Below, in pieces: positions 1,168 to 19,601 of a DNA stretch of 20,409 nucleotides (within the stretch, counting starts at the first letter, position 1; each line of letters begins with the position of its first letter). The notes beneath the pieces were generated by a model. It had not been told where the DNA came from and did not search any database. It saw nothing but the letters and a program-made list of their open reading frames with translations. Made by a program: the position numbers and the translations under genes. Source of the stretch: a virus; the IMG/VR virus record IMGVR_UViG_3300006920_005296, positions 1 to 20,409 of that record. The stretch is one strand, 5' to 3'.

Positions 1168-1764
1168 TTATAATTTTGCTCTATAATCATTTAATCGTTG
1201 GTGATATTTATCTAGTGCTTCTAAATCAGCTTTTTCAATTGCTTTGATAAATTTAGGTTTAAGCTCTTTCATTAAATCAATAAGACCACTATTCCAATCT
1301 CTTAATCTAGCTGCTTCTTCGAACTCTTCATTTTCAACTGCATAATCTAATTGCTCTTGAAATGTCATTGGTTCTATATCTTCAAATTCTATATCTACTA
1401 TTTTATTATTAAAATTAAAGAATGGATTTAAAAAGTCATCGTTTGTTGAATTCATATTATAGTTATAATCTAGGTTTAATTGTGAAAAGTCTATGTCGGT
1501 TGGCAATGGACCAACTTTTTTTAAATATACATGATACTTTGGTCCCTTTTCAGTTACCCATTTTACTCTTGACATTTCCCATTCGGTGCCTTTAACGGTT
1601 TCCACTTCATCGGGGTCACCAAATCCAGAAACACTTTCAGGAGGGTTATCAATAGCATATTCTAACGACTCTAACATCTCATTAATTTCATTTTTTGAAA
1701 AAAAGAAAGTTAGAATTTGTTGATTCGTTGGAGGTTCTTTTTTATTTAAAAAATCTTTATCCAT
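1168..1764 (-). CDS. UVR-motif protein of unknown function
   Basis: This 198-residue protein has a C-terminal UVR-like helical hairpin at about residues 133-160 (FQEQLDYAVENEEFEEAARL followed by RD). That motif mediates UvrB-UvrC contact and also occurs in clamp-loader-like and protease-adaptor proteins such as McsA. The N-terminal part (about 1-130) is acidic with an Asn/Phe-rich stretch near 100-120 and is not recognised. The start at MDKDFL is chosen because the longer reading frame begins inside the -7 box of the promoter at 1775-1805. That leaves a very short leader. An adaptor for a host protease or repair complex is possible but is only inference from the motif. Confidence 0.75.
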   Translation of the reverse strand: MDKDFLNKKEPPTNQQILTFFFSKNEINEMLESLEYAIDNPPESVSGFGDPDEVETVKGTEWEMSRVKWVTEKGPKYHVYLKKVGPLPTDIDFSQLNLDYNYNMNSTNDDFLNPFFNFNNKIVDIEFEDIEPMTFQEQLDYAVENEEFEEAARLRDWNSGLIDLMKELKPKFIKAIEKADLEALDKYHQRLNDYRAKL

Positions 1765-1774
1765 AAACTTAATA

Positions 1775-1805
1775 CAAATATACATATTATTTTTCTATCT
1801 CGCAA
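1775..1805 (-). promoter_or_regulatory. Bacteroidetes-type promoter for the UVR-motif gene
   Basis: The minus strand reads TTG, 20 bases, TATATTTG. It lies inside the 3' end of rmlC. The -7 box ends 11 bases before the chosen ATG, so the leader is only a few bases. Confidence 0.65.
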
Positions 1806-2335
1806 AGATTTGGCCACTTTTTATCTTTATCTGACATAATTGCTTCATCAGTGTTAACATACCAATGAATATTTAAATCAGGGTCAAAAGGGTTAATCCC
1901 AGCTTCAGAATCTTTATTATAATAATTATCACACTTATAAATAAATATGGTCTCATCTGTAATAACTGAAAATCCATGTGCAAATCCTCTAGGAATATAT
2001 AATTGTTTCTTATTTTCACCACTTAAATGAACGCTATAATGTTGACCGAATGTTTTAGAATCTGGTCTCAAATCTAATGCAACATCAATTACTGAACCTT
2101 CTACTACCCTAACCAATTTGGCTTGTGCATCTTTACCTTTTTGATAATGAAGCCCTCTAACAGTAAATATATCGGACATTGATTCATTATCTTGTACAAA
2201 TACTGGTGATATACCACCCGTTTCTTCAGCAAACTTTAATGCATTGAAGGTCTCCAAAAAATACCCTCTTTCATCTTCAAATACCGTAGGTTCAATTACA
2301 AATAAACCTTCAAATTCTGTTTCTTCTATTTTCAT
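1787..2335 (-). CDS. rmlC: dTDP-4-dehydrorhamnose 3,5-epimerase RmlC
   Basis: This 182-residue protein is the usual length for RmlC, the cupin enzyme that epimerises C3 and C5 of dTDP-4-keto-6-deoxyglucose on the way to dTDP-L-rhamnose. Visible family signatures are FEDERGYFLETF (19-30), VRGLHYQ (59-65, catalytic His63), a basic residue at Lys73, the cupin strand with IPRGFAHGF (114-122) and YKCDNYY (133-139, catalytic Tyr). It follows rmlA with a 1-base gap in the same minus-strand operon. RmlB and RmlD are absent here, so the phage may boost or redirect a host pathway, for example for surface glycan or glycosylation of its own components. The family assignment is firm; the pathway role in infection is inferred. 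Confidence 0.95.
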   Translation of the reverse strand: MKIEETEFEGLFVIEPTVFEDERGYFLETFNALKFAEETGGISPVFVQDNESMSDIFTVRGLHYQKGKDAQAKLVRVVEGSVIDVALDLRPDSKTFGQHYSVHLSGENKKQLYIPRGFAHGFSVITDETIFIYKCDNYYNKDSEAGINPFDPDLNIHWYVNTDEAIMSDKDKKWPNLCEIEK

Positions 2336-2336
2336 A

Positions 2337-3206
2337 TTATCCTTCTCTTATTATTTCTCTCAAATACTCACCATAACCTGATTTATTTAATAATAAGGAT
2401 AAATCATGTAACTGTTGTGAACCAATATAACCCATTCTCCATGCAACTTCTTCAATTGAACCAATCTTAACGTTTGAGTTGCTTTGAGTTGCTTTGATAA
2501 AATTATTAGCTTCATTCAATGAATCAAATGTGCCAGTATCTAACCATGAAGAACCTCTAGGTAAAATCCTAGCTAGTAATTGATTCCTTTCTAAATAAAT
2601 CTTATTTATATCAGTGATTTCTAATTCACCTCTATCACTTGGTTCTAAATTTTTAGCAATCTCAACCACGCTATTATTATAAAAATAAAGACCTGGTATT
2701 GCGTAAGGTGATTTTGGATTTTTAGGTTTTTCTTCAAGTGATAAAACCTCACCACTTACATTAAATTGAACTACCCCAAATCTTCTTGGGTCTTTAACTT
2801 TATAAGCAAATATAACACCACCTTTAATATCACTCTTTGAGTCTTGTAGAATTTGTGACAATCCACTGCCGTGAAATATATTATCACCTAAAATTAAAGC
2901 AACATCATCATTACCAATGAATTCTTCACCAATAATAAATGCTTCAGCTAAACCATTAGGTTCTTCTTGATGAGCATACTCAAATTTACATCCCAATTGT
3001 GAACCATCACCCAATAAATTTTGGAATGCTCCTTGTTCATATATTGTTGTTATAATTAAGATTTCCCTAATACCAGCCAACATCAAAGTTGATAGTGGAT
3101 AATAAATCATTGGTTTATCATATATTGGCATTAGTTGTTTACTAACGCTAATTGTAAGTGGGTGCAACCTTGTTCCAGCACCACCAGCTAATATAATTCC
3201 TTTCAT
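2337..3206 (-). CDS. rmlA: Glucose-1-phosphate thymidylyltransferase RmlA
   Basis: This 289-residue protein is full length for RmlA. It makes dTDP-glucose from dTTP and glucose-1-phosphate, the first step of dTDP-sugar synthesis. The nucleotide-binding signature GGAGTRLHPLT (8-18) and LGDNIFHG (106-113, metal and sugar-phosphate region) are intact. EEKP and GSSWLDTGT further along are typical of the family. The start ATG overlaps the stop of the preceding 76-residue gene in an ATGA junction (3203-3206), implying translational coupling. It is followed immediately by rmlC. All catalytic landmarks are present, so it is probably active. It may draw on the dTTP pool, which is also needed for phage DNA. 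Confidence 0.95.
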   Translation of the reverse strand: MKGIILAGGAGTRLHPLTISVSKQLMPIYDKPMIYYPLSTLMLAGIREILIITTIYEQGAFQNLLGDGSQLGCKFEYAHQEEPNGLAEAFIIGEEFIGNDDVALILGDNIFHGSGLSQILQDSKSDIKGGVIFAYKVKDPRRFGVVQFNVSGEVLSLEEKPKNPKSPYAIPGLYFYNNSVVEIAKNLEPSDRGELEITDINKIYLERNQLLARILPRGSSWLDTGTFDSLNEANNFIKATQSNSNVKIGSIEEVAWRMGYIGSQQLHDLSLLLNKSGYGEYLREIIREG

Positions 3207-4975: not shown

Positions 4976-5290
4976 ATGAAAATGGTGTACTTATTGGTTG
5001 AGAATGGAGATAAACCTAGATATAAAATTGGTATTACAAAACATAACGCAAAGAAAAGAATCAAAGGGTTAAGTACGGGTAATAGTAACGTTATTGAAGT
5101 GGTATCTGAATTCAAATCAGAATACAATAATAAAATAGAAGGTAGTCTCCATAGAAGATATGGGACTAAACGTTTAAAAGGGGAATGGTTTGAGTTAGAA
5201 AAAGAAGACATCCAGAATTTTATTTCTGAATGTCAATCTTTACATGATACATTTAAAATGTTAGAGGATTCAGGAAACCCTTTTATTTAA
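4976..5290 (+). CDS. GIY-YIG superfamily nuclease (T5orf172/Mug113-like)
   Basis: This 104-residue protein consists of one compact nuclease domain. VYLLVENG (4-11) and YKIGITKH (16-23) correspond to the GIY and YIG strands. They are followed by the helix with LHRRYGTKR (about 58-66) and GEWFEL (69-74), the arrangement of the T5orf172 branch. It lies on the plus strand between minus-strand genes. Its stop codon overlaps the stop of the convergent nucleotidyltransferase gene by 4 bases (5287-5290). With no added DNA-binding domain it may be a free-standing homing nuclease or a phage nuclease acting on host DNA. Its second-class promoter is shared with other nuclease genes here. Confidence 0.8.
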   Translation: MKMVYLLVENGDKPRYKIGITKHNAKKRIKGLSTGNSNVIEVVSEFKSEYNNKIEGSLHRRYGTKRLKGEWFELEKEDIQNFISECQSLHDTFKMLEDSGNPFI

Positions 5291-6306
5291 ATACCCCAAG
5301 TCAAAGCATTACCAAAATCCTCATATATTTGTTCCACATGAGTTTCTAATACATAATCATCAAAATTATCGTAAATACCGTTGTATGAATGATTTATAAT
5401 GATATCTTTAAAACCTTTAATAGCATTTCCAAGTTCCTTACCTTCTAACTCAAACTTTTTCATAATAATACCACCACTAAATTTGGCATTCACCAAAGTC
5501 TTCCTAGCGTGTTTATAATTGATTTCAGCAAGGTGTAAATCAATATTTGATTCAGGGAATGCCTCTCTTATAATATCAATAACATTTTCTTTTGCTATCA
5601 TTACTATACTTTTATTATAATCAGGGTGTGCACCCTTATTCTTAATAAACTCTAAGAAAGCCATATAAGATGCTCGTTTAAGATTTCTCTCACGGTTAAT
5701 CTTATTTAACTGACTTAATTGAAACATCTCAGGATTAAATAACGAAGATGTCATTGCATATTCAAATATTTCTTCAAGTGTATTAAAACCTTTAACCCAT
5801 TTATTATAATCAAGACCTAAGAATTTGAAAATTTTAGGGTAATCTTTACTTACAATAATTTTGGTTTTAGTGTTTTGGTCACTATAATGATTATACCATA
5901 AACCTTCCTGACCATATTTAAGACCAATTGATTGTGCTAATCTACCGATAAAGTTACCAAGGTCATTAAACGCAAGGTAATGGTAGTTAGAATCAAAATC
6001 TTCTGGCGCACAAGTAATAAAGTCAACTTGAATCTCTTTATAATCAAATGACCATGCATTGCCATTATGAAAAGTTTCATTAGGTTTAAATGTTTCGTCA
6101 ATATAATCAGTCATATTACCCTCGAATCCTTCCAATGATATGATGATATCAATATCACCAAAGGTTTCTTTATGACTAAAGAAACGTGGAATATCATATC
6201 TATCAAATGTTTTTGAAAGGATATCAAAAATTTCATTCTTGATATCTTCAAACTCTTGACGTTCATAACGCCTAGTATATGTATTTTTAAGTGCTCTCCC
6301 CCCCAT
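5287..6306 (-). CDS. Predicted nucleotidyltransferase (Pol beta superfamily)
   Basis: This 339-residue protein carries an N-terminal nucleotidyltransferase core. FGDIDIIIS (49-57) holds the paired metal-binding aspartates Asp51 and Asp53, and QVDFITC (93-99) holds the expected third carboxylate Asp95. The region after about 110 is helical and may bind nucleic acid. The Pol beta superfamily includes CCA-adding enzymes, poly(A) polymerases and antibiotic or toxin nucleotidyltransferases. The substrate cannot be told from sequence. It follows the alpha-CTD-like gene and converges on the GIY-YIG-type gene. A role in tRNA or nucleic-acid end modification would fit the nearby ligases but is inference. 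Confidence 0.75.
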   Translation of the reverse strand: MGGRALKNTYTRRYERQEFEDIKNEIFDILSKTFDRYDIPRFFSHKETFGDIDIIISLEGFEGNMTDYIDETFKPNETFHNGNAWSFDYKEIQVDFITCAPEDFDSNYHYLAFNDLGNFIGRLAQSIGLKYGQEGLWYNHYSDQNTKTKIIVSKDYPKIFKFLGLDYNKWVKGFNTLEEIFEYAMTSSLFNPEMFQLSQLNKINRERNLKRASYMAFLEFIKNKGAHPDYNKSIVMIAKENVIDIIREAFPESNIDLHLAEINYKHARKTLVNAKFSGGIIMKKFELEGKELGNAIKGFKDIIINHSYNGIYDNFDDYVLETHVEQIYEDFGNALTWGI

Positions 6307-7669: not shown

Positions 7670-8959
7670 TTATTGAAATTCAATCAAATATGCGATTGTG
7701 CATTGTTTTCCATCATAAATAATAAATTCATCATTTCTAAGGTCTGCACCCCCATGAGCATAAACACTATCATAACCTTCTTTATCCATAACCGATTTTG
7801 ATAAAGAATAACATGAACTATCATGATTAGTGATGTTTTTTTGTTTTCCATGATAAACATCATATAAAGCTAAGAAACCTTTATTTGAATTACCACCAGC
7901 CCAATAAGAACCCCTTACTGAACTATAGCCCAATGATTTTTGAGCTTTATTAGCAAAATATATTCCATCACCAAACATACTTCCAGTGTGTTGTACACCA
8001 GAAGGTCTAATCATTAATCCAGTTTGGATGATATTAAACCAGTTTTGATTTCTAGAGCCATGCCAGAATAATTTTCTATCCTTAAATCTAGCTTTACCAT
8101 AATGTTTATCAAATATAGCTTGAGTTTTCTTATTAACACATTTATAAATGGTTTTAGCTCTATCTTTAGTAGAACCCATTAACTTTTCAATCAACACTAT
8201 TTGTTTAGGGTCAGTTTCAACTGAAACTTCTAATCCCATTTGTTCTAATAATGTAATTTGTTTAGCAGTGTCACTATCTTTATCATCACTATCAACAGCA
8301 TCTTGTTGTTGAGAAATAAGTTTTACCTGACCAGCCATCGTATCTAACGTATCTTGTTCATTAGATAAAAAGTCATTTATTTTTGAAATATCGTTCTTAG
8401 TATCGGCTTTTTCCAATAGATAATCACGAACATCCTTCATTTGTCTTGGAATGATTGTATATAATTCAATTAACAAGTCGTTAATATCCTTAATATCTAC
8501 ACCAACTTTAACTTTTTTAGCGACCTTATTTAAAATATCTTGCGCTGCATCAATTTGAGATTGAGTTACAGACTCTTGTGTAACCTTATAGTTTGTTTGA
8601 ATAGATTTATTTGCAAAAGCCATTAAATCTTCAAATAATGCTTTAACTTTATAATCTTGAATATCTACAATATCACTTGCAGTTGAGCCACTTGAAGTGA
8701 ATACGGTTTCAGTAATCAAGTCAGTTACATCTTTATAACCCTTTCTAGGGTTTGTTTTACTTCTTAAGACTTTTTCCCATTCATAAGAATCTTTATAAAC
8801 TGTAACTAAGTCTTTACCAACTCTACCATATTGGCATTTGATTTTACCATCACTTTGTTCTTCCATGATGTAAACCTTATTACTTTGCGCTGTCAACCCA
8901 TTATCAACTGATACGTGGATTAATTTAGCATATCTTAAACCGTCTTCTTTAGTGACCAT
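7670..8959 (-). CDS. WGR-domain poly(ADP-ribose) polymerase (PARP)
   Basis: Counting from the ATG at 8959, this is 429 residues. Residues about 10-80 form a WGR-like domain (NKVYIMEEQSDGKIKC then YGRVG; the usual Trp is Tyr). A helical region about 100-250 includes LYTIIPR, matching the PARP regulatory domain signature. The catalytic ART domain is about 290-429. LFWHGS carries His300, GDGIYFANKAQKSLGYSS carries Tyr334, and NDEFIIYDGKQ carries Glu411. This completes the H-Y-E triad of polymerising PARPs, so NAD+-dependent ADP-ribosylation is likely. The architecture is that of compact DNA-break-dependent PARPs. A TTG start at 9007 adding 16 residues is possible but weaker. Targets in host or phage are unknown. 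Confidence 0.93.
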   Translation of the reverse strand: MVTKEDGLRYAKLIHVSVDNGLTAQSNKVYIMEEQSDGKIKCQYGRVGKDLVTVYKDSYEWEKVLRSKTNPRKGYKDVTDLITETVFTSSGSTASDIVDIQDYKVKALFEDLMAFANKSIQTNYKVTQESVTQSQIDAAQDILNKVAKKVKVGVDIKDINDLLIELYTIIPRQMKDVRDYLLEKADTKNDISKINDFLSNEQDTLDTMAGQVKLISQQQDAVDSDDKDSDTAKQITLLEQMGLEVSVETDPKQIVLIEKLMGSTKDRAKTIYKCVNKKTQAIFDKHYGKARFKDRKLFWHGSRNQNWFNIIQTGLMIRPSGVQHTGSMFGDGIYFANKAQKSLGYSSVRGSYWAGGNSNKGFLALYDVYHGKQKNITNHDSSCYSLSKSVMDKEGYDSVYAHGGADLRNDEFIIYDGKQCTIAYLIEFQ

Positions 8960-9030
8960 ATTTTTAAATGTTTTAACAAATGTAATAAAAATTTTAGAAA
9001 CCACCAAATGTTTCTTTAGTTTTATTATAT

Positions 9031-9313: not shown

Positions 9314-9346
9314 AAAAGGCCCACTTTAAGTGGGCCTTTTTATTTT
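9314..9346 (+). terminator. Strong terminator between convergent genes
   Basis: AAAAGGCCCAC pairs perfectly with GTGGGCCTTTT (11 bp, 5-base loop), followed by TATTTT. It ends the plus-strand membrane protein gene. The A-rich left side may also serve the minus-strand 2H phosphoesterase gene, whose stop codon overlaps the right arm. Confidence 0.92.
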
Positions 9347-9885
9347 ATTAAACCTTTGTTTAATAATCTTAATATATATCTGGAATGTTCTTCAGTCTTC
9401 CTTACTGGTCTTACAAGACCATCAGGATATAAATCATCATCTTTAGCATCTCTAGCGACCCCAAATGTCATGTGAAGTCCGAAGTAAGGTCTTCCAAGAC
9501 CTAATTCAGCTCTAATGTTATGTAAACCATCTCTAGCTTCTTCAGGAACCACTAACCACCAATTAATACCATCTGACCTAACATCTGTTGATAATTCGAT
9601 TTCAATGGTTTTACCATTCCACTTCTTCTTAACTTCAGCCCATTTATTTGCTTTATCGCCCATATCTCTAAGACTGTCGTTAATAAATGTTACATGAGCT
9701 TTTCTAATTGATTCACCTAAAAATAGATGATATCTTTTCTTTATAAACCATCGGTAGTAACCTTTAATATCACCATCAAATTCAACTATAGCAACTTTCT
9801 TCCACTTACCTTGATTCCTGTGTTTCTCAGTAATGTTAGGTGGGTCAAATAATATTTTACCTTTTATTTTAAATGATTGCTTCAT
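9340..9885 (-). CDS. 2H phosphoesterase superfamily protein, possibly Acb1-like
   Basis: This 181-residue protein has the two HxT motifs that define 2H phosphoesterases: KAHVTF (His64, Thr66) and GLHMTF (His138, Thr140), 74 residues apart. The superfamily includes LigT-type RNA ligase/cyclic phosphodiesterases, tRNA-processing CPDases and the phage anti-CBASS enzyme Acb1 (T4 gp57B), which cleaves cyclic nucleotide signals. Size and motif spacing are compatible with Acb1, but the sequence alone does not decide. The ATG starts 5 bases after the -7 box, predicting a leaderless, single-gene transcript ended by the terminator at 9314. It is independent of the genes around it, as a counter-defence gene often is. 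An RNA-end role beside the RNA ligase is the alternative. Confidence 0.75.
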   Translation of the reverse strand: MKQSFKIKGKILFDPPNITEKHRNQGKWKKVAIVEFDGDIKGYYRWFIKKRYHLFLGESIRKAHVTFINDSLRDMGDKANKWAEVKKKWNGKTIEIELSTDVRSDGINWWLVVPEEARDGLHNIRAELGLGRPYFGLHMTFGVARDAKDDDLYPDGLVRPVRKTEEHSRYILRLLNKGLIK

Positions 9886-13621: not shown

Positions 13622-14344
13622 TTACGCAAGTTTTTTACCCCTCAAAAATTCCCTTAAAAAGGCATTCTTTTCACCACCGATAAAATCAAGCCATTTGGAA
13701 TAAGCTTCATCTTTTTCTTTAAACCAAGTAGCAACTTCTGTTGGTGTTGCATCTTCAGATAATGGTTTATCAAATGTGAAATCTTCATATAACTTCTTAT
13801 CAAAGCACCTCTCGTCAACTAAGAATACTATTGCTGTTAACATTGAGTTTAAATCAGGTTCATTGAATGTTGAAACTCTGACATTATTTTGCTTTAAATC
13901 TGCTAGGTGTTGTTGCATAGAACCAACATACATCTCTTGTTTAAAACCATGTGTTACTAAATGACCTTCATTAGAAGTACCACCATTTAATAATATATTT
14001 GTTTTCCACTGAAGAAGAAAATTCAAATAGTCTTCATCATCACGATAAATAAGACGATATTCATCATTAGCGTGATTAAATTGGATACCTTGTTGTATAG
14101 GAGATAGATTGTATGGCACAAGACCGTACATTCTTAACTCCAAATACTTTTCAGGTTTTTGTGGGGGTGTATTTTCTTTAAAATTTCCAGTACTTAGGAA
14201 CCCCTTAAATTCTGTATAATTAATTTCTTCTAACATAAACCAATCCTCATCTTGAGTTTTATTTGGTCTAATGTTATTAACTAAACACCAGTTATATGGA
14301 GTTTGGTATTTTTCTAAAATGTCGTTACCATCTTCTTGTGTCAT
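13622..14344 (-). CDS. Possible PTH2-fold protein with a duplicated C-terminal domain
   Basis: This 240-residue protein has a middle region that follows the peptidyl-tRNA hydrolase 2 pattern. YNLSPIQQGIQFNHANDEY (about 78-96) resembles the PTH2 signature G-x2-xxQ-xxHA-xxE. It is followed by a Lys-rich strand, then HLADLKQNNVRVSTFNEPDL and a TAI strand. PTH2 itself is shorter and acts on peptidyl-tRNA; phage relatives with the same fold are of unknown role. The last 60 or so residues form a separate domain ending FIGGEKNAFLREFLRGKKLA, shared with the 67-residue protein at 11788-11991. It overlaps the upstream gene by 20 bases. The fold assignment is tentative. Confidence 0.5.
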   Translation of the reverse strand: MTQEDGNDILEKYQTPYNWCLVNNIRPNKTQDEDWFMLEEINYTEFKGFLSTGNFKENTPPQKPEKYLELRMYGLVPYNLSPIQQGIQFNHANDEYRLIYRDDEDYLNFLLQWKTNILLNGGTSNEGHLVTHGFKQEMYVGSMQQHLADLKQNNVRVSTFNEPDLNSMLTAIVFLVDERCFDKKLYEDFTFDKPLSEDATPTEVATWFKEKDEAYSKWLDFIGGEKNAFLREFLRGKKLA

Positions 14345-14709: not shown

Positions 14710-15678
14710 TTAAAGCCCTACTTGTGCGTTAAGTTTACTAAAAAACATTTGTCTTACTCGATTAGATAAATATTTTCCAACATCTTTCATTTCAAGACCA
14801 TTATCAGCTAAAGTATCACTTTCTTCAGAAACAATATCTGATACAACCCATTTGATGATTTCACCAGTCTTTTTCTGGTCCAATATTCCATCAGGGAAAA
14901 CAATACCTAAACCTTGTTCAAGTCTATTCTCAGTTGCAGCATATTCAACAAATTCATTAATAGAATTAAGTTTTTCAGTATCAACTTTAGCAAGTGTTTT
15001 GTTTTTAGTAACACTATGTTTATCACCCTTAACCTTGAATCTATAATCATGACCGTTTACTTGGGCCACCCAAACAACACCTTCACCAATCCCCTCAAAG
15101 CCAAACGCTTTAGCTACTGGACATAACTTCTCAACTTCAGTAGTTATATCAGCTAATTCATTTTGAGCCATCTCAGGTGCGTTAAAATCGATTTCTATAT
15201 CATAACATAAGAAATCTTCTATGTTATATACCCTATTATCTTTATCCCTTAAGTAATCTGATGGTAAATGATATGCTTCGCTACCATCTTCAGGCACTAT
15301 CTTAACATCAAAGATGAATAATGACTTCTCGATTTGAGAAACTCCAACGCCTTTTTGGATTGAGCTACCAGCCCATTCACCGAATATAAACACCCCATCG
15401 TTAGGATTTAAGTTGGTGTTTACATATCTTACATGCTCAACCAATTCAAGAAATGTCTTTTTATTATCTTCAACGTATCTAGCAAAACCAAAATTATCAT
15501 TTTCTGGTGTGATTATGTTGGTTCTGGATTGTGCCCAAAGACCATCTTCTTCAGTATGCCCAATACCAGCATTAGAATTATGAACTAATACGCTGTTAGC
15601 GAAAAAACAATTTGTTTCATCAACAGAAATATCGTAAGACCTTCTATTTTCTATTTTATTAATTGACTTAAGTTTCAT
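14710..15678 (-). CDS. Split intein C-fragment fused to the C-terminal half of an Rnl2-type RNA ligase
   Basis: This is a 322-residue protein. Residues 1-34 are an intein C-fragment: block F is YDISVDETNCFFAN and block G is VLVHN, followed by Ser35 as the first extein residue. The rest begins SNAGIG, completing nucleotidyl-transfer motif I of an RNA ligase whose KLHG is encoded in another gene. Motif III is FGEWAG (99-104), motif IV is GEGVVW (198-203) and motif V is RFKVKGDKH (213-221, Lys215 and Lys217). The Rnl2 family seals nicks in duplex RNA via a ligase-AMP intermediate. Alone this half lacks the catalytic lysine, so it needs trans-splicing with the product of 16542-17360. Its ATG overlaps the stop of the intervening endonuclease gene (ATGA, 15675-15678). 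Confidence 0.92.
   Translation of the reverse strand: MKLKSINKIENRRSYDISVDETNCFFANSVLVHNSNAGIGHTEEDGLWAQSRTNIITPENDNFGFARYVEDNKKTFLELVEHVRYVNTNLNPNDGVFIFGEWAGSSIQKGVGVSQIEKSLFIFDVKIVPEDGSEAYHLPSDYLRDKDNRVYNIEDFLCYDIEIDFNAPEMAQNELADITTEVEKLCPVAKAFGFEGIGEGVVWVAQVNGHDYRFKVKGDKHSVTKNKTLAKVDTEKLNSINEFVEYAATENRLEQGLGIVFPDGILDQKKTGEIIKWVVSDIVSEESDTLADNGLEMKDVGKYLSNRVRQMFFSKLNAQVGL
15577..15678 (-). other. Intein C-fragment coding segment (34 residues)
   Basis: It encodes blocks F and G, ending in His33-Asn34 before Ser35. This is the penultimate His and terminal Asn needed for Asn cyclisation, with Ser as the splicing nucleophile. Confidence 0.9.
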
Positions 15679-16487
15679 TTTTTTTCTATAAATTTAATTA
15701 TTTTTTTCTTAATTTTTTCCCTATTTTCATACCAATCATCTTCCCAAACCATAAACACTCGATAACCCTTTCTTTTTAAAAACCAAGTTCGTTTTCTATC
15801 TTTTTCCCATTTATCTGAACAAAACATTTTAATTGCTGTGTTATAATAATCCCCATCATATTTTCTAGGGTTACAATGGTATAAATCCCCATTGTATTCA
15901 ACAACAATTTTTTTATCAATATTACATTCATCAACTTCAAGTTTATCTATTACATGGTGTTGTTTAAATCCGTAATTTTTTAAAAAATCGTGTAATTCAT
16001 TATGACCTTTAGATGTAAAACCAATTTTAGAATTTTTAAAAATCTTTAAATAATGTTTCAACCTAAATTCTTCATCTGAATTTAATTTATCATGCAATGC
16101 CTTATTCGCTCTTGTTACTTGTTTATATTGTTCTTTTTTAGACATAGATTCCCACCTTTCTGTTGAAAATCTACCTACATTGTCATGGTTCAAAGCTGAT
16201 GCATCACCACCTAATTTAGCGTTTTTAATCCTATTTTTTTTACTTATTTTAGATAAACTTTTTTTACCAATTTCTGAAATAATTTTACCTTCAACAATTT
16301 TAGCGCACTCAACACATAAATCTTTATTATATCGCTCAAACCTTTTTTTTGTTTTATCGAACCTTTCGTCATAAATTAAATTACAACTATCACATTCTAT
16401 TTTATTTATTGGGAATTTAATTTTAGATAAATGTTTAGAGTAGCCCCACCTACCATTAACTAATTCACACCATGTCGTTTTAATCAT
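15675..16487 (-). CDS. Vsr/EDxHD-like homing endonuclease between the split-intein halves
   Basis: This 270-residue protein has an N-terminal cysteine zinc site (CDSC at 32-35, CVEC at 58-61). A basic region about 75-135 holds RIKNAKLGG and RWESMSKKEQ, which look like nuclease-associated DNA-binding modules. The C-terminal PD-(D/E)xK nuclease resembles Vsr. IVVEYNGDLYHCNPRKYDG (194-212) and RTWFLKRKGYRVFMVWEDDW (233-252) match its strand-D/H and 'KGYRVxxVWExDW' patterns. Such free-standing endonucleases are known between the halves of phage genes fractured by split inteins, where they probably promote homing of the break region. It has its own second-class promoter motif and a 12-base palindrome upstream, and ends in an ATGA overlap with the downstream half gene. 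Confidence 0.85.
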   Translation of the reverse strand: MIKTTWCELVNGRWGYSKHLSKIKFPINKIECDSCNLIYDERFDKTKKRFERYNKDLCVECAKIVEGKIISEIGKKSLSKISKKNRIKNAKLGGDASALNHDNVGRFSTERWESMSKKEQYKQVTRANKALHDKLNSDEEFRLKHYLKIFKNSKIGFTSKGHNELHDFLKNYGFKQHHVIDKLEVDECNIDKKIVVEYNGDLYHCNPRKYDGDYYNTAIKMFCSDKWEKDRKRTWFLKRKGYRVFMVWEDDWYENREKIKKKIIKFIEKK

Positions 16488-16500
16488 ACTTATTCTTTAT

Positions 16501-16509
16501 TATAAATAT
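16501..16509 (-). promoter_or_regulatory. Second-class promoter motif of the Vsr-like endonuclease gene
   Basis: The minus strand reads ATATTTATA, then AATAAAGAATAAGT, then ATG. It sits in the 54-base gap between the N-terminal ligase half and the endonuclease gene, so the latter could be expressed on its own schedule. Confidence 0.4.
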
Positions 16510-16514
16510 GAATA

Positions 16515-16526
16515 GTTTCATGAAAC
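16515..16526. repeat. 12-base perfect palindrome GTTTCATGAAAC
   Basis: It lies in the 54-base gap between the two coding regions, just upstream of the second-class motif at 16501. It could be an operator or the endonuclease's recognition element. Confidence 0.5.
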
Positions 16527-16541
16527 CAATGCTTAAATGTG

Positions 16542-17360
16542 TTAAATTTTTATAAATTCATCTTCAGAAGTTAAATCAGACGCTTCAACCCAACCTCTAT
16601 TTTTGGTATAAAATTTATGGTCTTCAGTACATTTAATAATATTACCATCGTCAAATTCTAATTCCAACCAATTTTTATCAGAATCAAAATTTTGAGTATT
16701 AGTAACTATTTTATTTACCATTATATTTTTTTTAGTGTCATAACTTAAAACTGAATCACCAATATTGATTTCACTAATTGAGACTTCTTCCCCGTTACTC
16801 AAAGTAACTAAAGTGTCTTTATCAAAACACCCATGTAATTTTACAGTACCCTTAAATTTAATGGTAGGGGATGCTTTAGAAGGGTCATATATCGGGTCAC
16901 CATTTTCATCTTTCCCAACGTATGAAGCTCTTTGTCTAGCTTCTTTTACTACTTGTCTATATTGCCCTATTTTAGGGAATGCACTATGTTTTTTCATTTT
17001 ATTATATTTTGTTAAATTTTCTAAGTCGTAATGATATTTACATTCATTAGCAACTCTACTTGGTAATATATAACCCTTTTCCCTACCCTTTTTAGCAATC
17101 CCAAAAGATTTACATAACCAATGTTTTAAATATAATCGGATACAAAATTCTGAATAACTATCCGCTGTAATCCAAGTTCCCCTTGAATCTAGGTTATATT
17201 TTTCTATAGCAATCTTCAAATCTTTAGAGTAGTTACCATATTTATCATATGCGAGTCCAGCCGCTATTTCTTGAATAGCTTTATGAGAATATGGTGATAA
17301 CTTATATACCGTATATACATTATCTGAAATTCTATGTCGATATTTTAGTCTACTTCCCAT
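16542..17360 (-). CDS. N-terminal half of an Rnl2-type RNA ligase fused to a split intein N-fragment
   Basis: This is a 272-residue protein. Residues about 123-177 are the start of an RNA ligase: KKHSAFPKIGQYRQV, then TIKFKGTVKLHG, with the AMP-accepting Lys174 of motif I. At residue 178 an intein begins. Block A is CFDKDTLVTLSNG with Cys178 as nucleophile, and block B is KCTEDHKFY with the T-x2-H pair. It stops after 95 intein residues, and the C-fragment lies two genes downstream. The junction KLHG/SN interrupts the ligase active site itself. Residues 1-122 form an extra N-terminal domain that I do not recognise. The ATG overlaps the preceding ATPase fragment by 11 bases. Trans-splicing with 14710-15678 should rebuild a ligase of about 465 residues. 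Confidence 0.92.
   Translation of the reverse strand: MGSRLKYRHRISDNVYTVYKLSPYSHKAIQEIAAGLAYDKYGNYSKDLKIAIEKYNLDSRGTWITADSYSEFCIRLYLKHWLCKSFGIAKKGREKGYILPSRVANECKYHYDLENLTKYNKMKKHSAFPKIGQYRQVVKEARQRASYVGKDENGDPIYDPSKASPTIKFKGTVKLHGCFDKDTLVTLSNGEEVSISEINIGDSVLSYDTKKNIMVNKIVTNTQNFDSDKNWLELEFDDGNIIKCTEDHKFYTKNRGWVEASDLTSEDEFIKI
16545..16829 (-). other. Intein N-fragment coding segment (95 residues)
   Basis: It encodes blocks A and B of a Hint fold and ends FIKI at the stop codon. No endonuclease domain lies within the intein itself. Confidence 0.9.
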
Positions 17361-17559
17361 TTATTAAATTTACGTGGTCCATTGGAAAAAAACCAAGATA
17401 CCTATCTTCACCAGTATTTGGTATTAATTCTATTAGACTCGTATGACCACTGAATTTGCGTGGTGGTTGTTGGGTTGTCCATATCACCACATTATGTTCT
17501 TTAGCGATTTCCCTTAACTTTCCATAAAGTTCCATGGCTTTATTGTAATCCATTTCCAA
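17350..17559 (-). CDS. C-terminal fragment of a RecA/DnaB-like ATPase
   Basis: This 69-residue frame encodes YGKLREIAKEHNVVIWTTQQ followed by PPR. That is the helix, strand and sensor segment following Walker B in RecA/DnaB-type ATPases, where the Gln contacts the gamma-phosphate. A Walker A loop and Walker B aspartate are absent. The upstream DNA is the 3' end of the DNA ligase gene, overlapping by 20 bases, so the N-terminal part of the ATPase is not encoded here. It ends with an 11-base overlap with the RNA ligase half gene. Most likely a remnant of a helicase or recombinase gene displaced by recombination. A functional small protein, or trans-spliced partner elsewhere, cannot be excluded. 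Confidence 0.5.
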   Translation of the reverse strand: MEMDYNKAMELYGKLREIAKEHNVVIWTTQQPPRKFSGHTSLIELIPNTGEDRYLGFFPMDHVNLINGK

Positions 17560-18982
17560 CTTTTTGACTTAATCCTTTTGCCATTACTTCAATTTCTTGA
17601 GCTGACTGTAAAGAATCGCAAGAATTCTTATCGTCTCTCAACTCAACAACTGATGGGTGTAATGTTGACCAATCACCATCAGAGTTTTGTGATAAACCAC
17701 AACATCTGATTTCTACTATTGTACCCATAAGGTTATCAGCATTTTCAGTGATATTACTCATCATTTTCTCAGTCATACCAGAAGCATTGGTTCTTAATGT
17801 ACCGCATGATGATTCTAAATTTATCGTTGAGAATACATTCTCATTCTTAGTCCCTTTATCACCATATTCAAATCCGATAACTCTAAGGTCAATATTCATC
17901 TCTAGTTTCATTTTGCACTGTGTTGAAGGTTTTCCATCTTTCCATCCAGCAGTAGGTGCTTTAAGAATTGTACCTTCTTCACCTCTATTTAAAATCTCTT
18001 GAAAGTGAGTCATTGCTTCATCATAAGAATATACTTTTTTACGTTCAACTACTGATACTCTCTTACATTCTAAGATAGGAGTCTTTTTAAATAAGAAATC
18101 CAAACGATGTCTATACTCAATATCTGATTTTCTTTCGAAATAATTTTCAAGGGTAATTGAATCCCAAACAGTATATCTGATTTTAGATACCGCATCAAAA
18201 TAGTTACCATGTTTTTTATCAAAAGCAACCAATTTTTTTAATGTATCTTCATCACTTCTATCACCCATTTTACCACGACCTTCAATATCAACGATTGATG
18301 CTATGATTCCATTACTTGTATAACGGTCCATTACTGAACCATCTTCATTTATCATTGTTAATTCACCATTTAATACCCCATCAGGGAATTTGGATAATTC
18401 TTCTATCAATAATGAATCTTGTGGTATATATGTGGTTTCACCTTGACGTGATTCTAATTCTACTTCACCACCTTGGATTATTGCATTAGCATATCTACCA
18501 TCCATCTTAACATCACTGTAAGCATATCCAAATTTTTTGAATATATCTCTAGCTAATTTTTCACTAAATGATTTAGCACCTTGATATGGTGTTTTTTCAA
18601 TTAAATTAGGGATTATCTTATTGATAAATGTAGTCCCTAGACCATTTTTAGGGTCTTTATCTATAATTCTTTCAATAATATAAGCATCATCTGGATGAAG
18701 CTTCTCTAACATTAATTGTAAATGTAAAGTAGCTGAATTGCCAGTTAATTTACGTTCACTTAATAATTTAAGGTCTTCTAAAGCATCTTTAAGTGTTAAT
18801 TTAGAATACCCTAAATATGTATATTCAGGTATTTGTTTAATGAAGAATTTAACTCGTTTAGATTTTATCAAATATAAAACCTCTTTAAGTAATTCATTAT
18901 CCTTATACTTACGTAAAACATCCATTTTGGCATTATTACCAGAAGTCTCACTAATTTCGTCAAAAATCGCTTTAATTGTCAT
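17540..18982 (-). CDS. ATP-dependent DNA ligase
   Basis: This 480-residue protein, similar in length to T4 DNA ligase, joins nicks in duplex DNA using ATP. Motif I is VKMDGRY (158-164) with adenylated Lys159, motif III is LNGELTM (204-210), the DSITL region corresponds to IIIa, motif IV is EGTILKAP (336-343) and motif V is CKMKLE (356-361). The N-terminal 150 residues are the helical DNA-binding region. The C-terminal OB domain follows motif V. All catalytic motifs are intact. It starts 1 base after the nucleotidyltransferase gene in a minus-strand operon with the RNA ligase halves. The C-terminal tail overlaps the ATPase fragment by 20 bases. Confidence 0.95.
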   Translation of the reverse strand: MTIKAIFDEISETSGNNAKMDVLRKYKDNELLKEVLYLIKSKRVKFFIKQIPEYTYLGYSKLTLKDALEDLKLLSERKLTGNSATLHLQLMLEKLHPDDAYIIERIIDKDPKNGLGTTFINKIIPNLIEKTPYQGAKSFSEKLARDIFKKFGYAYSDVKMDGRYANAIIQGGEVELESRQGETTYIPQDSLLIEELSKFPDGVLNGELTMINEDGSVMDRYTSNGIIASIVDIEGRGKMGDRSDEDTLKKLVAFDKKHGNYFDAVSKIRYTVWDSITLENYFERKSDIEYRHRLDFLFKKTPILECKRVSVVERKKVYSYDEAMTHFQEILNRGEEGTILKAPTAGWKDGKPSTQCKMKLEMNIDLRVIGFEYGDKGTKNENVFSTINLESSCGTLRTNASGMTEKMMSNITENADNLMGTIVEIRCCGLSQNSDGDWSTLHPSVVELRDDKNSCDSLQSAQEIEVMAKGLSQKVGNGLQ

Positions 18983-18983
18983 A

Positions 18984-19601
18984 TTATTTTTTTAATTTAT
19001 TAACTAACTCGTCAAAGATACGAAAATAATCTCGACTATCAAAATTTTCTTCCTCAATTTTCATAAATTCTTCGTACATCCCATTACATTCTTTAAAATC
19101 TACTATTTTTTGATGTTCCTTTAACTGTAACCCAAAATGTAATATCCTCAAAGCATGATACATACTTTTAATTGCACGTTCTTTATCACCATTTTTTGAT
19201 GCCATACATGAGTAGTGGCGACTATCTGAAGCTTTTCTAATAATAGCTTTAACCAATCGTTTATTATTCCAATTGGTTACCTTAAAAGGCCATTTCTTTA
19301 AAACTATTTGAGATTTATCTAAAGATAGACATTCTAATGCAGCAATTTCGTAATTGTTTATTGCATCCAAAAACCCACCCCTAGAATATACAACACCTTG
19401 AATACTCCAATCAGCATTTGAAATTGCATTATTCCTAAACGCACCGTTATCTAACATAGCACCTTTCATAACAATGATATAATCACGGTCAGACTTTTCA
19501 GTTGCGGTTCCATATACATGAGACCCATAAGGAAATATAGCTAATACATCACCTTCAACACCCAATTCTTCTAATATGTGTTTAGCCATTTCATCTTTCA
19601 T
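18984..19601 (-). CDS. Small nucleotidyltransferase (YGSxxYGTA-type)
   Basis: In this 205-residue protein, FPYGSHVYGTATEKSDRDYI (23-42) is the signature of minimal nucleotidyltransferases of the Pol beta superfamily, with metal-binding Asp38 and Asp40. The C-terminal half is helical (RHYSCMASKNGDKERAIKSM) and resembles the HEPN-like or substrate-binding helices found with this group. It is common in large phages, but the substrate is not established. The A of its ATG is the last base of the upstream stop (TAATG), so translation is coupled to the HD hydrolase gene. Together with the larger nucleotidyltransferase at 5287 the window has two members of the superfamily. Confidence 0.85.
   Translation of the reverse strand: MKDEMAKHILEELGVEGDVLAIFPYGSHVYGTATEKSDRDYIIVMKGAMLDNGAFRNNAISNADWSIQGVVYSRGGFLDAINNYEIAALECLSLDKSQIVLKKWPFKVTNWNNKRLVKAIIRKASDSRHYSCMASKNGDKERAIKSMYHALRILHFGLQLKEHQKIVDFKECNGMYEEFMKIEEENFDSRDYFRIFDELVNKLKK

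What the first reader, a model, noticed from the sequence alone, without database searches (positions are those of the whole stretch)
7670..8959. Phage-encoded PARP with WGR, regulatory and catalytic domains
All three residues of the H-Y-E triad (His300, Tyr334, Glu411) and a WGR-like domain are visible. Phage ADP-ribosyltransferases such as T4 Alt and ModA lack this architecture. A DNA-break-sensing PARP in a phage could modify host polymerase, drain NAD+ or counter NAD+-based defences. The regulatory region has an acidic Asp/Gln-rich insertion near residues 215-235.
Basis: partly seen in the sequence, partly recalled or inferred. Interest (0 to 1): 0.82.

Follow-up and report, generated by a model that had tools for sequence, protein, structure and literature searches.

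The report
Phage PARP beside DNA/RNA repair genes
A large, uncultured phage that probably infects Bacteroidota carries a complete PARP enzyme like the one human cells use to sense broken DNA, and in its relatives this gene sits in a conserved block of DNA- and RNA-joining enzymes, so it may be a viral strand-break sensor; phage PARPs as such were already known.

Summary
Window 7670-8959 (minus strand) encodes 429 aa: a WGR-type DNA-binding domain (motif YGR), a helical autoinhibitory domain and a PARP catalytic domain with H300-Y334-E411. Pfam PARP E=2.4e-24. The AlphaFold model aligns over residues 3-429 with human PARP1 bound to a DNA break (Z 24.6).

It is not the first phage PARP. Cellulophaga phi4:1, Aeh1 and XacN1 versions are published. 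New here: a phage-specific clade (40 distinct sequences, 99% support) in contigs up to 368 kb, all motifs conserved, under purifying selection. In most of them PARP sits among an Rnl2-type RNA ligase, an ATP-dependent DNA ligase and a 2H-like phosphoesterase. Relatives of 200 kb or more nearly all carry nicotinamide salvage (NadV); in the one island read in full it lies with NadM, NADAR, macrodomain and sirtuin genes. PARP has its own Bacteroidota-type promoter. Macrodomain co-occurrence is only at the jumbo-phage background rate; no PARG was found.

Most likely reading: a DNA-end-activated ADP-ribosyltransferase serving phage nucleic-acid end repair. Rivals: ADP-ribosylation or NAD+ drain against host or rival phages; direct ADP-ribosylation of DNA/RNA ends. 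Activity, DNA dependence and polymer formation are untested.

The parts
7670..8959 (-). PARP gene, 429 aa, WGR - helical domain - ART catalytic domain
   Evidence: PF00644 E=2.4e-24; PHROG 23333 E=3.9e-58; A2 profile against PARP1 E=1.6e-29; AF2 model against 4dqy Z 24.6
8714..8935 (-). WGR-type domain, residues about 9-82; YGR motif (residues 44-46) at 8822-8830
   Evidence: Y44, G45, R46, K68, K73, Y75 invariant in 43 phage homologues; Pfam WGR over cut-off in RAS14 and phi4:1 homologues; strands and helix in the model
8306..8665 (-). Helical (PARP regulatory) domain, residues about 99-218
   Evidence: Helices 103-123, 133-149, 156-169, 188-224 in the model; aligned to the PARP1 helical domain; the PARP_reg Pfam model itself does not score
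7676..8233 (-). ART catalytic domain, residues about 243-428; H300 at 8060-8062, Y334 at 7958-7960, E411 at 7727-7729
   Evidence: PF00644; H300 and Y334 invariant, E411 present in every homologue that reaches that column
8977..9008 (-). Bacteroidota-type promoter TTTG-N20-TAnnTTTG just upstream of the PARP start codon
   Evidence: same signature within 150 bp upstream of PARP in 17 of 30 dereplicated homologues against 2.2% at random positions
9314..9340 (.). Symmetric intrinsic-terminator hairpin that separates PARP from the upstream gene
   Evidence: 12-bp stem; sequence
9340..9885 (-). 2H-like phosphoesterase candidate (181 aa), conserved neighbour of PARP
   Evidence: Two H-x-[ST]-x motifs (HVTF at 64, HMTF at 138) present in 35 of 35 family members; within 6 kb of PARP in all 24 dereplicated loci that hold it; no Pfam match
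13622..14344 (-). Conserved neighbour of unknown function (240 aa, cluster C)
   Evidence: 25 of 30 dereplicated loci, median 199 bp from PARP; no Pfam match
14710..15678 (-). Rnl2-type RNA ligase, C-terminal part, preceded by a C-intein
   Evidence: PF09414, PHROG 548 RNA ligase E=5e-55; BLAST to intact ligases of relatives
16542..17360 (-). RNA ligase N-terminal part ending at the KLHG motif, followed by an N-intein (Hint)
   Evidence: Hint PF01079 E=2.5e-11; residues 122-178 match the start of intact ligases
17540..18982 (-). ATP-dependent DNA ligase (KMDG active site)
   Evidence: PF01068 E=3.6e-11, PHROG 114 E=5e-100; KxDG; in 21 of 30 dereplicated PARP loci
18984..19601 (-). Pol-beta-type nucleotidyltransferase (RlaP-like at weak score)
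   Evidence: PF01909 E=4e-4 just over cut-off; RlaP E=0.04 below cut-off
5287..6306 (-). Nucleotidyltransferase of PHROG 'DNA polymerase' type (cluster N), downstream of PARP
   Evidence: PHROG 24943 E=3e-31; in 11 of 30 dereplicated loci, all within 6 kb of PARP

Best explanation
It is a genuine PARP1/2/3-type ADP-ribosyltransferase of a large phage that probably infects Bacteroidota. The WGR domain should bind a DNA end or nick; this relieves the helical domain's block of the NAD+ site; the H-Y-E ART domain then attaches ADP-ribose (mono or poly) to itself, to proteins at the break, or to the nucleic-acid end. I think it serves the phage's own nucleic-acid repair, marking or handing over strand breaks to the ATP-dependent DNA ligase, RNA ligases and end-healing enzymes encoded around it, much as PARP1 acts ahead of ligase and kinase in eukaryotic single-strand-break repair. 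The nicotinamide released can be returned to NAD+ by the NadV enzyme these phages carry, and ADP-ribose may be removed by their macrodomain, NADAR or ARH proteins. Shown: gene, domains, motifs, fold, conservation, promoter, linkage. Inferred: DNA-dependent activation, acceptor, repair role.
For: Domains and triad. YGR and the K68/K73/Y75 residues invariant, H300 and Y334 invariant (43 sequences); these correspond to the co-evolving WGR and donor-site residues described for bacterial PARPs (PMC5966428). Purifying selection: dN/dS 0.06-0.32 where measurable, 0.21 for window against L002. The 40 phage proteins form one clade at 99% support, so the gene has been kept long within phages. Linkage: of 30 dereplicated loci, RNA ligase in 24 (21 within 6 kb), 2H-like protein in 24 (all within 6 kb), DNA ligase in 21 (18 within 6 kb), plus PNK, RlaP and Pol-beta-type enzymes in fewer. 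Partly independent repeat of the linkage: phi4:1 has a poly(A)/CCA-type nucleotidyltransferase directly before PARP and the DNA ligase two genes after. In L059 a P-loop kinase ORF (weak AAA_33 match) ends 10 bp before PARP. NadV in 15 of 23 PARP-bearing records, and in all 9 records of 200 kb or more (one of them below the curated cut-off), against 33% of jumbo phages (PMC9503650); the L147 island holds NadM-Nudix, NAMPT/NadV, NADAR, macro and SIR2.
Against: No activity data. PARP has its own promoter and a terminator hairpin before it, so it is not simply co-transcribed with the ligases. Gene linkage in one phage lineage can be inherited rather than functional; the L060, L064 and RAS14 lineages lack the ligase block. 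The neighbourhood is as much an RNA-repair as a DNA-repair one. H-Y-E does not guarantee polymer: human PARP3 has it too (own knowledge). No PARG in any of 23 phage records, although PARP-bearing bacteria often have one (4 of 9).
Confidence: 0.5

Rival explanations
1. Takeover or counter-defence enzyme: break-activated ADP-ribosylation of host proteins (or of DNA of rival phages), or local NAD+ consumption that starves NAD+-using host functions, including host NAD+-dependent ligase and TIR/SIR2 effectors, while the phage relies on its own ATP-dependent ligases.
For: Iyer and colleagues suggest phage ARTs and PARPs modify host proteins (PMC7824862, PMC9503650). The NAD+-dependent ligase family is absent from all 21 PARP records other than LR756500 and RAS14, and the phage DNA ligase has the ATP-type KxDG motif. 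The phages carry a rich NAD+/ADP-ribose gene set.
Against: The NAD+ salvage genes in the same phages work against draining NAD+. The neighbours are repair genes, not known takeover or defence genes. Absence of the NAD+-type ligase could be lineage history. No head-packaging fusion; in the isolated phage phi4:1 the PARP is not among the proteins annotated as structural by mass spectrometry.
Confidence: 0.25
2. End-modifying enzyme: it ADP-ribosylates 5'- or 3'-phosphate ends of DNA or RNA, as a reversible cap or as part of tRNA/RNA repair with the neighbouring RNA ligases, RlaP nucleotidyltransferase, kinase-phosphodiesterase and 2H-like enzyme; macro, NADAR or ARH remove the cap.
For: The tightest conserved neighbours include the Rnl2 RNA ligase and the 2H-like protein; a T4 Rnl1-type RNA ligase, RlaP, a kinase with a tRNA-ligase phosphodiesterase match and Nudix lie further out; KptA lies about 8 kb from PARP in L060. 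ADP-ribosylation of DNA and RNA by ARTs is the subject of the review PMC8385414 (abstract seen).
Against: WGR domains of characterised PARPs respond to DNA ends. The synteny does not say which substrate is used. The 2H assignment rests on two short motifs only.
Confidence: 0.2
3. Inert or decaying host-derived gene that hitch-hikes in the phage without function.
For: Related PARPs occur in Bacteroidota.
Against: Invariant motifs in 43 homologues, purifying selection, an old phage-specific clade, a dedicated promoter in most members.
Confidence: 0.03

Closest known systems
Cellulophaga phage phi4:1 gp031 (AGO49444.1), named as a viral PARP by Perina et al. 2014 (PMC4245714)
   Same: Full-length homologue (31% identity), YGR + H-Y-E, phage-encoded, near a DNA ligase and a nucleotidyltransferase
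   Different: Neighbouring genes differ except the ligase; shorter; long branch in the tree, placement unresolved
Bacterial PARPs (Herpetosiphon HaPARP, Clostridioides CdPARP; Bacteroidota homologues L066-L099 here)
   Same: WGR(YGR)-HD-ART architecture, H-Y-E; 38-46% identity to Bacteroidota copies; HaPARP is DNA-activated (PMC5966428)
   Different: Separate clade; position 327 next to the active site is Ser in most phage copies and Lys in most bacterial copies; no PARG in the phage records
Human PARP1/PARP2/PARP3
   Same: Same three-domain order and fold; model fits PARP1 on a DNA break, Z 24.6, 25% identity
   Different: No zinc fingers or BRCT of PARP1; no acceptor or polymerisation data
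Xanthomonas phage XacN1 PARP (BBA65562.1, PMC7824862) and Klebsiella phage PARPs
   Same: PARP catalytic domain in large phages
   Different: Only the catalytic part matches by tblastn (residues 257-429); context not compared
T4 Alt/ModA/ModB
   Same: Phage ADP-ribosyltransferases
   Different: R-S-E clade (PMC9503650), no WGR or helical domain; Alt is head-packaged

Membership tests
DNA-dependent PARPs (PARP1/2/3 clade and bacterial PARPs) | ART catalytic domain with H-Y-E triad | tested here: met
   PF00644 E=2.4e-24; H300, Y334, E411
DNA-dependent PARPs (PARP1/2/3 clade and bacterial PARPs) | WGR domain | tested here: met
   YGR form; family profile covers the PARP1/2 WGR; homologues over Pfam cut-off; structure. 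Pfam WGR alone does not score on the window protein
DNA-dependent PARPs (PARP1/2/3 clade and bacterial PARPs) | Helical autoinhibitory (PARP_reg) domain | tested here: met
   Met by fold and profile alignment; the Pfam PARP_reg model does not score on the window protein and is below cut-off for RAS14
DNA-dependent PARPs (PARP1/2/3 clade and bacterial PARPs) | Activation by DNA breaks | not testable with these tools
   Needs enzyme assay
DNA-dependent PARPs (PARP1/2/3 clade and bacterial PARPs) | Poly(ADP-ribose) synthesis | not testable with these tools
   H-Y-E is needed but not sufficient
Complete PAR cycle (PARP + PARG) | PARG in the same genome | tested here: not met
   PF10021 absent in 23 phage records (records may be fragments); the same model finds it in 4 of 9 PARP-bearing bacteria
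Phage Alt/Mod ARTs | R-S-E catalytic motif | tested here: not met
   Catalytic residues are H-Y-E; only PF00644 matches
Head-packaged phage ARTs | Fusion to MuF/portal or location in the head-gene cluster | tested here: not met
   No extra domain; neighbours in the window and main clade are ligases and small proteins. In phi4:1 it lies about 1.5 kb from an MS-verified structural gene but is not annotated as structural itself
ART toxin-antitoxin pairs (DarTG, ART-ARG) | Antitoxin (macro, NADAR or ARG) directly adjacent | tested here: not met
   None adjacent among the window proteins scanned; macro or ARH genes lie 7 kb or more away in relatives

The most novel reading that the evidence does not exclude
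A lineage of huge Bacteroidota phages runs its own strand-break signalling circuit: a WGR-HD-ART PARP senses nicks or breaks and marks them with ADP-ribose for phage ligases and end-healing enzymes, while phage NadV/NadM recycle the nicotinamide and phage macro/NADAR/ARH proteins erase the mark. That would be a viral counterpart of the eukaryotic PARP1-XRCC1-PNKP-ligase pathway.
Probability: 0.25. Interest if true: 0.85.

Novelty: new member of a known kind. Interest (0 to 1): 0.5.

Why it matters
The native function of prokaryotic PARPs is unknown; bacterial ones are scattered and their role untested (PMC4245714, PMC5966428). A phage clade that keeps the break-sensing architecture, with a constant set of ligases and end-healing genes and a promoter of its own, gives a natural setting in which that function can be tested, in a phage (phi4:1) that is already in culture. 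It also bears on where PARPs came from: Iyer and colleagues propose that phage and bacterial PARPs precede the eukaryotic ones (PMC7824862).

Tried and rejected
Macrodomain partner as proof of a reversible system: 13 of 23 records have one, but the published background is 56% of jumbo and 40% of medium phages, so no enrichment; dropped as evidence. ARH in 4 of 23 against about 5% of jumbo phages, but two of the four are near-identical genomes; kept only as a remark. 'Operon' with the ligases: rejected for the window, because PARP has its own promoter and a terminator hairpin precedes it; called a syntenic block instead. Acidic insert as a special feature: rejected. First scan of bacterial genomes with the single protein found nothing; the family profile found 58 loci. 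Pfam WGR, PARP_reg and NCBIfam on the single protein: no match. Terminase model phrog_2 misses phi4:1 and several records, so absence there means little. Sigma-70 consensus scan gave only chance numbers. Paper searches for phage PARP with repair genes found no such report in the held open-access library; subscription papers were not searched. The 2015 review of ART history by Aravind and colleagues was not read here.

Full report
What is there. The gene lies on the minus strand at 7670-8959 and encodes 429 residues. The Pfam PARP catalytic model matches at E=2.4e-24 and PHROG 23333 ('polymerase', probably named after poly-ADP-ribose polymerase) matches nearly end to end at E=3.9e-58. Pfam's WGR and PARP_reg models do not score on this sequence, so those two claims were tested separately.

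Domains. A search for relatives in viral contigs gave 61 loci, and tblastn against named phages gave 15 records. With the window, 43 distinct full-length proteins remain. In these Y44-G45-R46, K68, K73, Y75, H300, Y334, K341 and Y345 are invariant, and E411 is present in all 42 that reach it. A profile of 12 of them matches human PARP1 and PARP2 through the WGR, helical and catalytic domains (E=1.6e-29). The RAS14 and phi4:1 members pass the Pfam WGR cut-off. The AlphaFold model from 27 phage sequences (mean pLDDT 79) aligns with PARP1 on a DNA double-strand break over residues 3-429, Z 24.6, rmsd 4.0, 368 residues; Foldseek agrees. The YGR form is the commonest one in bacterial PARPs (PMC5966428), so it is not a defect. 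The same paper notes that many bacterial PARPs lack a Pfam PARP_reg match yet model with a helical domain, as here.

Phage, not host. The window is an IMG/VR virus record of 20,409 bases. Its homologues sit in virus contigs of up to 368 kb in IMG/VR and 462 kb in LR756500, terminase is found in most of the large ones, and the window carries a T5 A1-type DNA-transfer protein (PHROG 1745, E=5e-126) and six tRNA genes. In the isolated phage phi4:1 the PARP lies near MS-verified structural genes and a DNA ligase. Host: a Bacteroidota-type promoter (TTTG, 17-23 bases, TAnnTTTG; the consensus is from my own knowledge) lies at 8977-9008, just before the start codon. The same signature occurs within 150 bp upstream of PARP in 17 of 30 dereplicated homologues, against 2.2% of random positions in the same loci. 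The named closest phages infect Cellulophaga, and the closest cellular homologues are Saprospiraceae and Cytophagales. All of this points to a Bacteroidota host; it is an inference.

Descent. On a tree of 96 proteins, 40 phage PARPs form one group (99% SH-aLRT) beside a Bacteroidota-plus-Bacillota group (97%). phi4:1 and LR756500 are near but unresolved, and RAS14 falls elsewhere (quick tree, several long branches). So phages have kept this gene for a long time and probably obtained PARPs more than once. Pairwise dN/dS is 0.06-0.32 where synonymous sites are not saturated.

Neighbourhood. In the main lineage the order is DNA ligase - (small) - Rnl2 RNA ligase - (67 aa) - PARP - 240-aa protein - (188 aa) - 2H-like protein, all on one strand; the window has the DNA ligase, RNA ligase, 67-aa, 240-aa and 2H-like genes in a rearranged order with insertions. 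After dereplication at 90% identity (30 loci): RNA ligase in 24, 2H-like protein in 24, 240-aa protein in 25, DNA ligase in 21; several loci are too short to show all. The 2H assignment rests on two H-x-[ST]-x motifs present in 35 of 35 members, with no Pfam support. Further out lie a T4 Rnl1-type RNA ligase, a kinase with a tRNA-ligase phosphodiesterase match, RlaP, Nudix and HD enzymes. Both DNA and RNA end repair are thus represented. The DNA ligase is ATP-type (KMDG); the NAD+-type ligase was found only in LR756500 and RAS14. In the window PARP has its own promoter and a terminator hairpin at 9314-9340 separates it from the upstream gene, so 'syntenic block' is right and 'operon' is not shown.

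NAD+ economy. A NadV-type gene is in 15 of 23 PARP-bearing records (14 over cut-off) and in all 9 records of 200 kb or more (one under the curated cut-off), against 33% of jumbo phages in a published survey (PMC9503650). The records are related (some near-identical), so this is suggestive only. One island read in full (L147) holds NadM-Nudix, a NAMPT-type NadV (uses nicotinamide, the PARP by-product), NADAR, macro and sirtuin genes; NadV lies about 36-42 kb from PARP in several relatives (positions). Macrodomains occur at background frequency. PARG was not found, while 4 of 9 PARP-bearing bacteria have it. None of these genes was found in the window itself, which is a fragment.

Mechanism. Identity as a PARP of the DNA-dependent type is as good as sequence and fold can make it. 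That it is switched on by DNA ends is inferred from the conserved WGR contact residues and helical domain. That it serves repair is inferred from neighbours, and I put it at about one in two. Counter-defence or takeover and direct end modification are live rivals and are not exclusive of one another.

Known and new. Phage PARPs were listed by Perina et al. 2014 (phi4:1, Aeh1; PMC4245714) and by Iyer et al. 2021 and 2022 (PMC7824862, PMC9503650), who suggest host-protein modification. BFVD already holds a close structural relative annotated as NAD(+) ADP-ribosyltransferase of a 'Bacteriophage sp.'. I found no report of the linkage with ligases and end-healing enzymes, of the phage-specific clade, or of the dedicated promoter; the library searched is open-access only. 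The protein is therefore a new member of a known kind in an undescribed, conserved setting.

Noticed in passing
14710-17360 (minus strand): The RNA ligase is split exactly at its catalytic motif: the N-part ends at KLHG and runs into an N-intein (Hint, PF01079), a free-standing ORF with a DUF559/REase_MTES_1575 match (15675-16487) follows, and the C-part starts with a short C-intein ending VLVHN before SNAGIGH. This looks like a split-intein 'fractured gene' with its own endonuclease; near relatives L002-L006 have the same arrangement, most others have an intact ligase.
   Followed up: partly
16542-17360, residues 1-121: About 120 extra residues precede the RNA ligase start in the N-part ORF; a similar stretch occurs as a separate ORF in L059 (13021-13491).
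   Followed up: no
L147 (11 kb), with counterparts in L148, L150 and L152: NAD+ salvage island of the large relatives: NadM-Nudix, NAMPT/NadV, NADAR, macro and sirtuin genes in L147; NadV and macro (or NADAR-like) genes recur together in the others.
   Followed up: partly
L149 / LR756500 40000-50000: ARH (ADP-ribosylhydrolase) lies about 0.7 kb from NadV and about 13 kb from PARP; a macrodomain gene lies about 10 kb on the other side of PARP.
   Followed up: partly
L060:1380-1910: KptA/Tpt1 RNA 2'-phosphotransferase (E=1.5e-55) about 8 kb from PARP in a 340-kb phage contig.
   Followed up: no
13622-14344: Conserved 240-aa family (Y.WC, RMYG, LSPIQQGIQ..HA, LNGGT, EPDL, FLVDER) present in 25 of 30 dereplicated PARP loci, with no known family; the LSPIQQGIQ..HA stretch recalls peptidyl-tRNA hydrolase 2 (from memory, untested).
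   Followed up: no
window, 5 sites on the minus strand (1775, 6898, 8977, 9890, 19013): Bacteroidota-type promoter signature occurs 5 times against 1.9 expected, all on the coding strand and several directly before start codons.
   Followed up: partly
1787-3206 (minus strand): dTDP-sugar genes (a nucleotidyl transferase of the glucose-1-phosphate thymidylyltransferase kind and a dTDP-4-dehydrorhamnose 3,5-epimerase) carried by the phage.
   Followed up: no
1168-1785 (minus strand): Protein with a UvrB/UvrC (UVR) motif, E=1.5e-4 just over cut-off, possibly another repair-related gene.
   Followed up: no
PARP residue 327 (window 7979-7981): Next to the active site the phage clade has Ser where bacterial PARPs mostly have Lys and PARP1 has Tyr (PARP1 from the alignment), a clade-specific change that could affect acceptor choice.
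   Followed up: no
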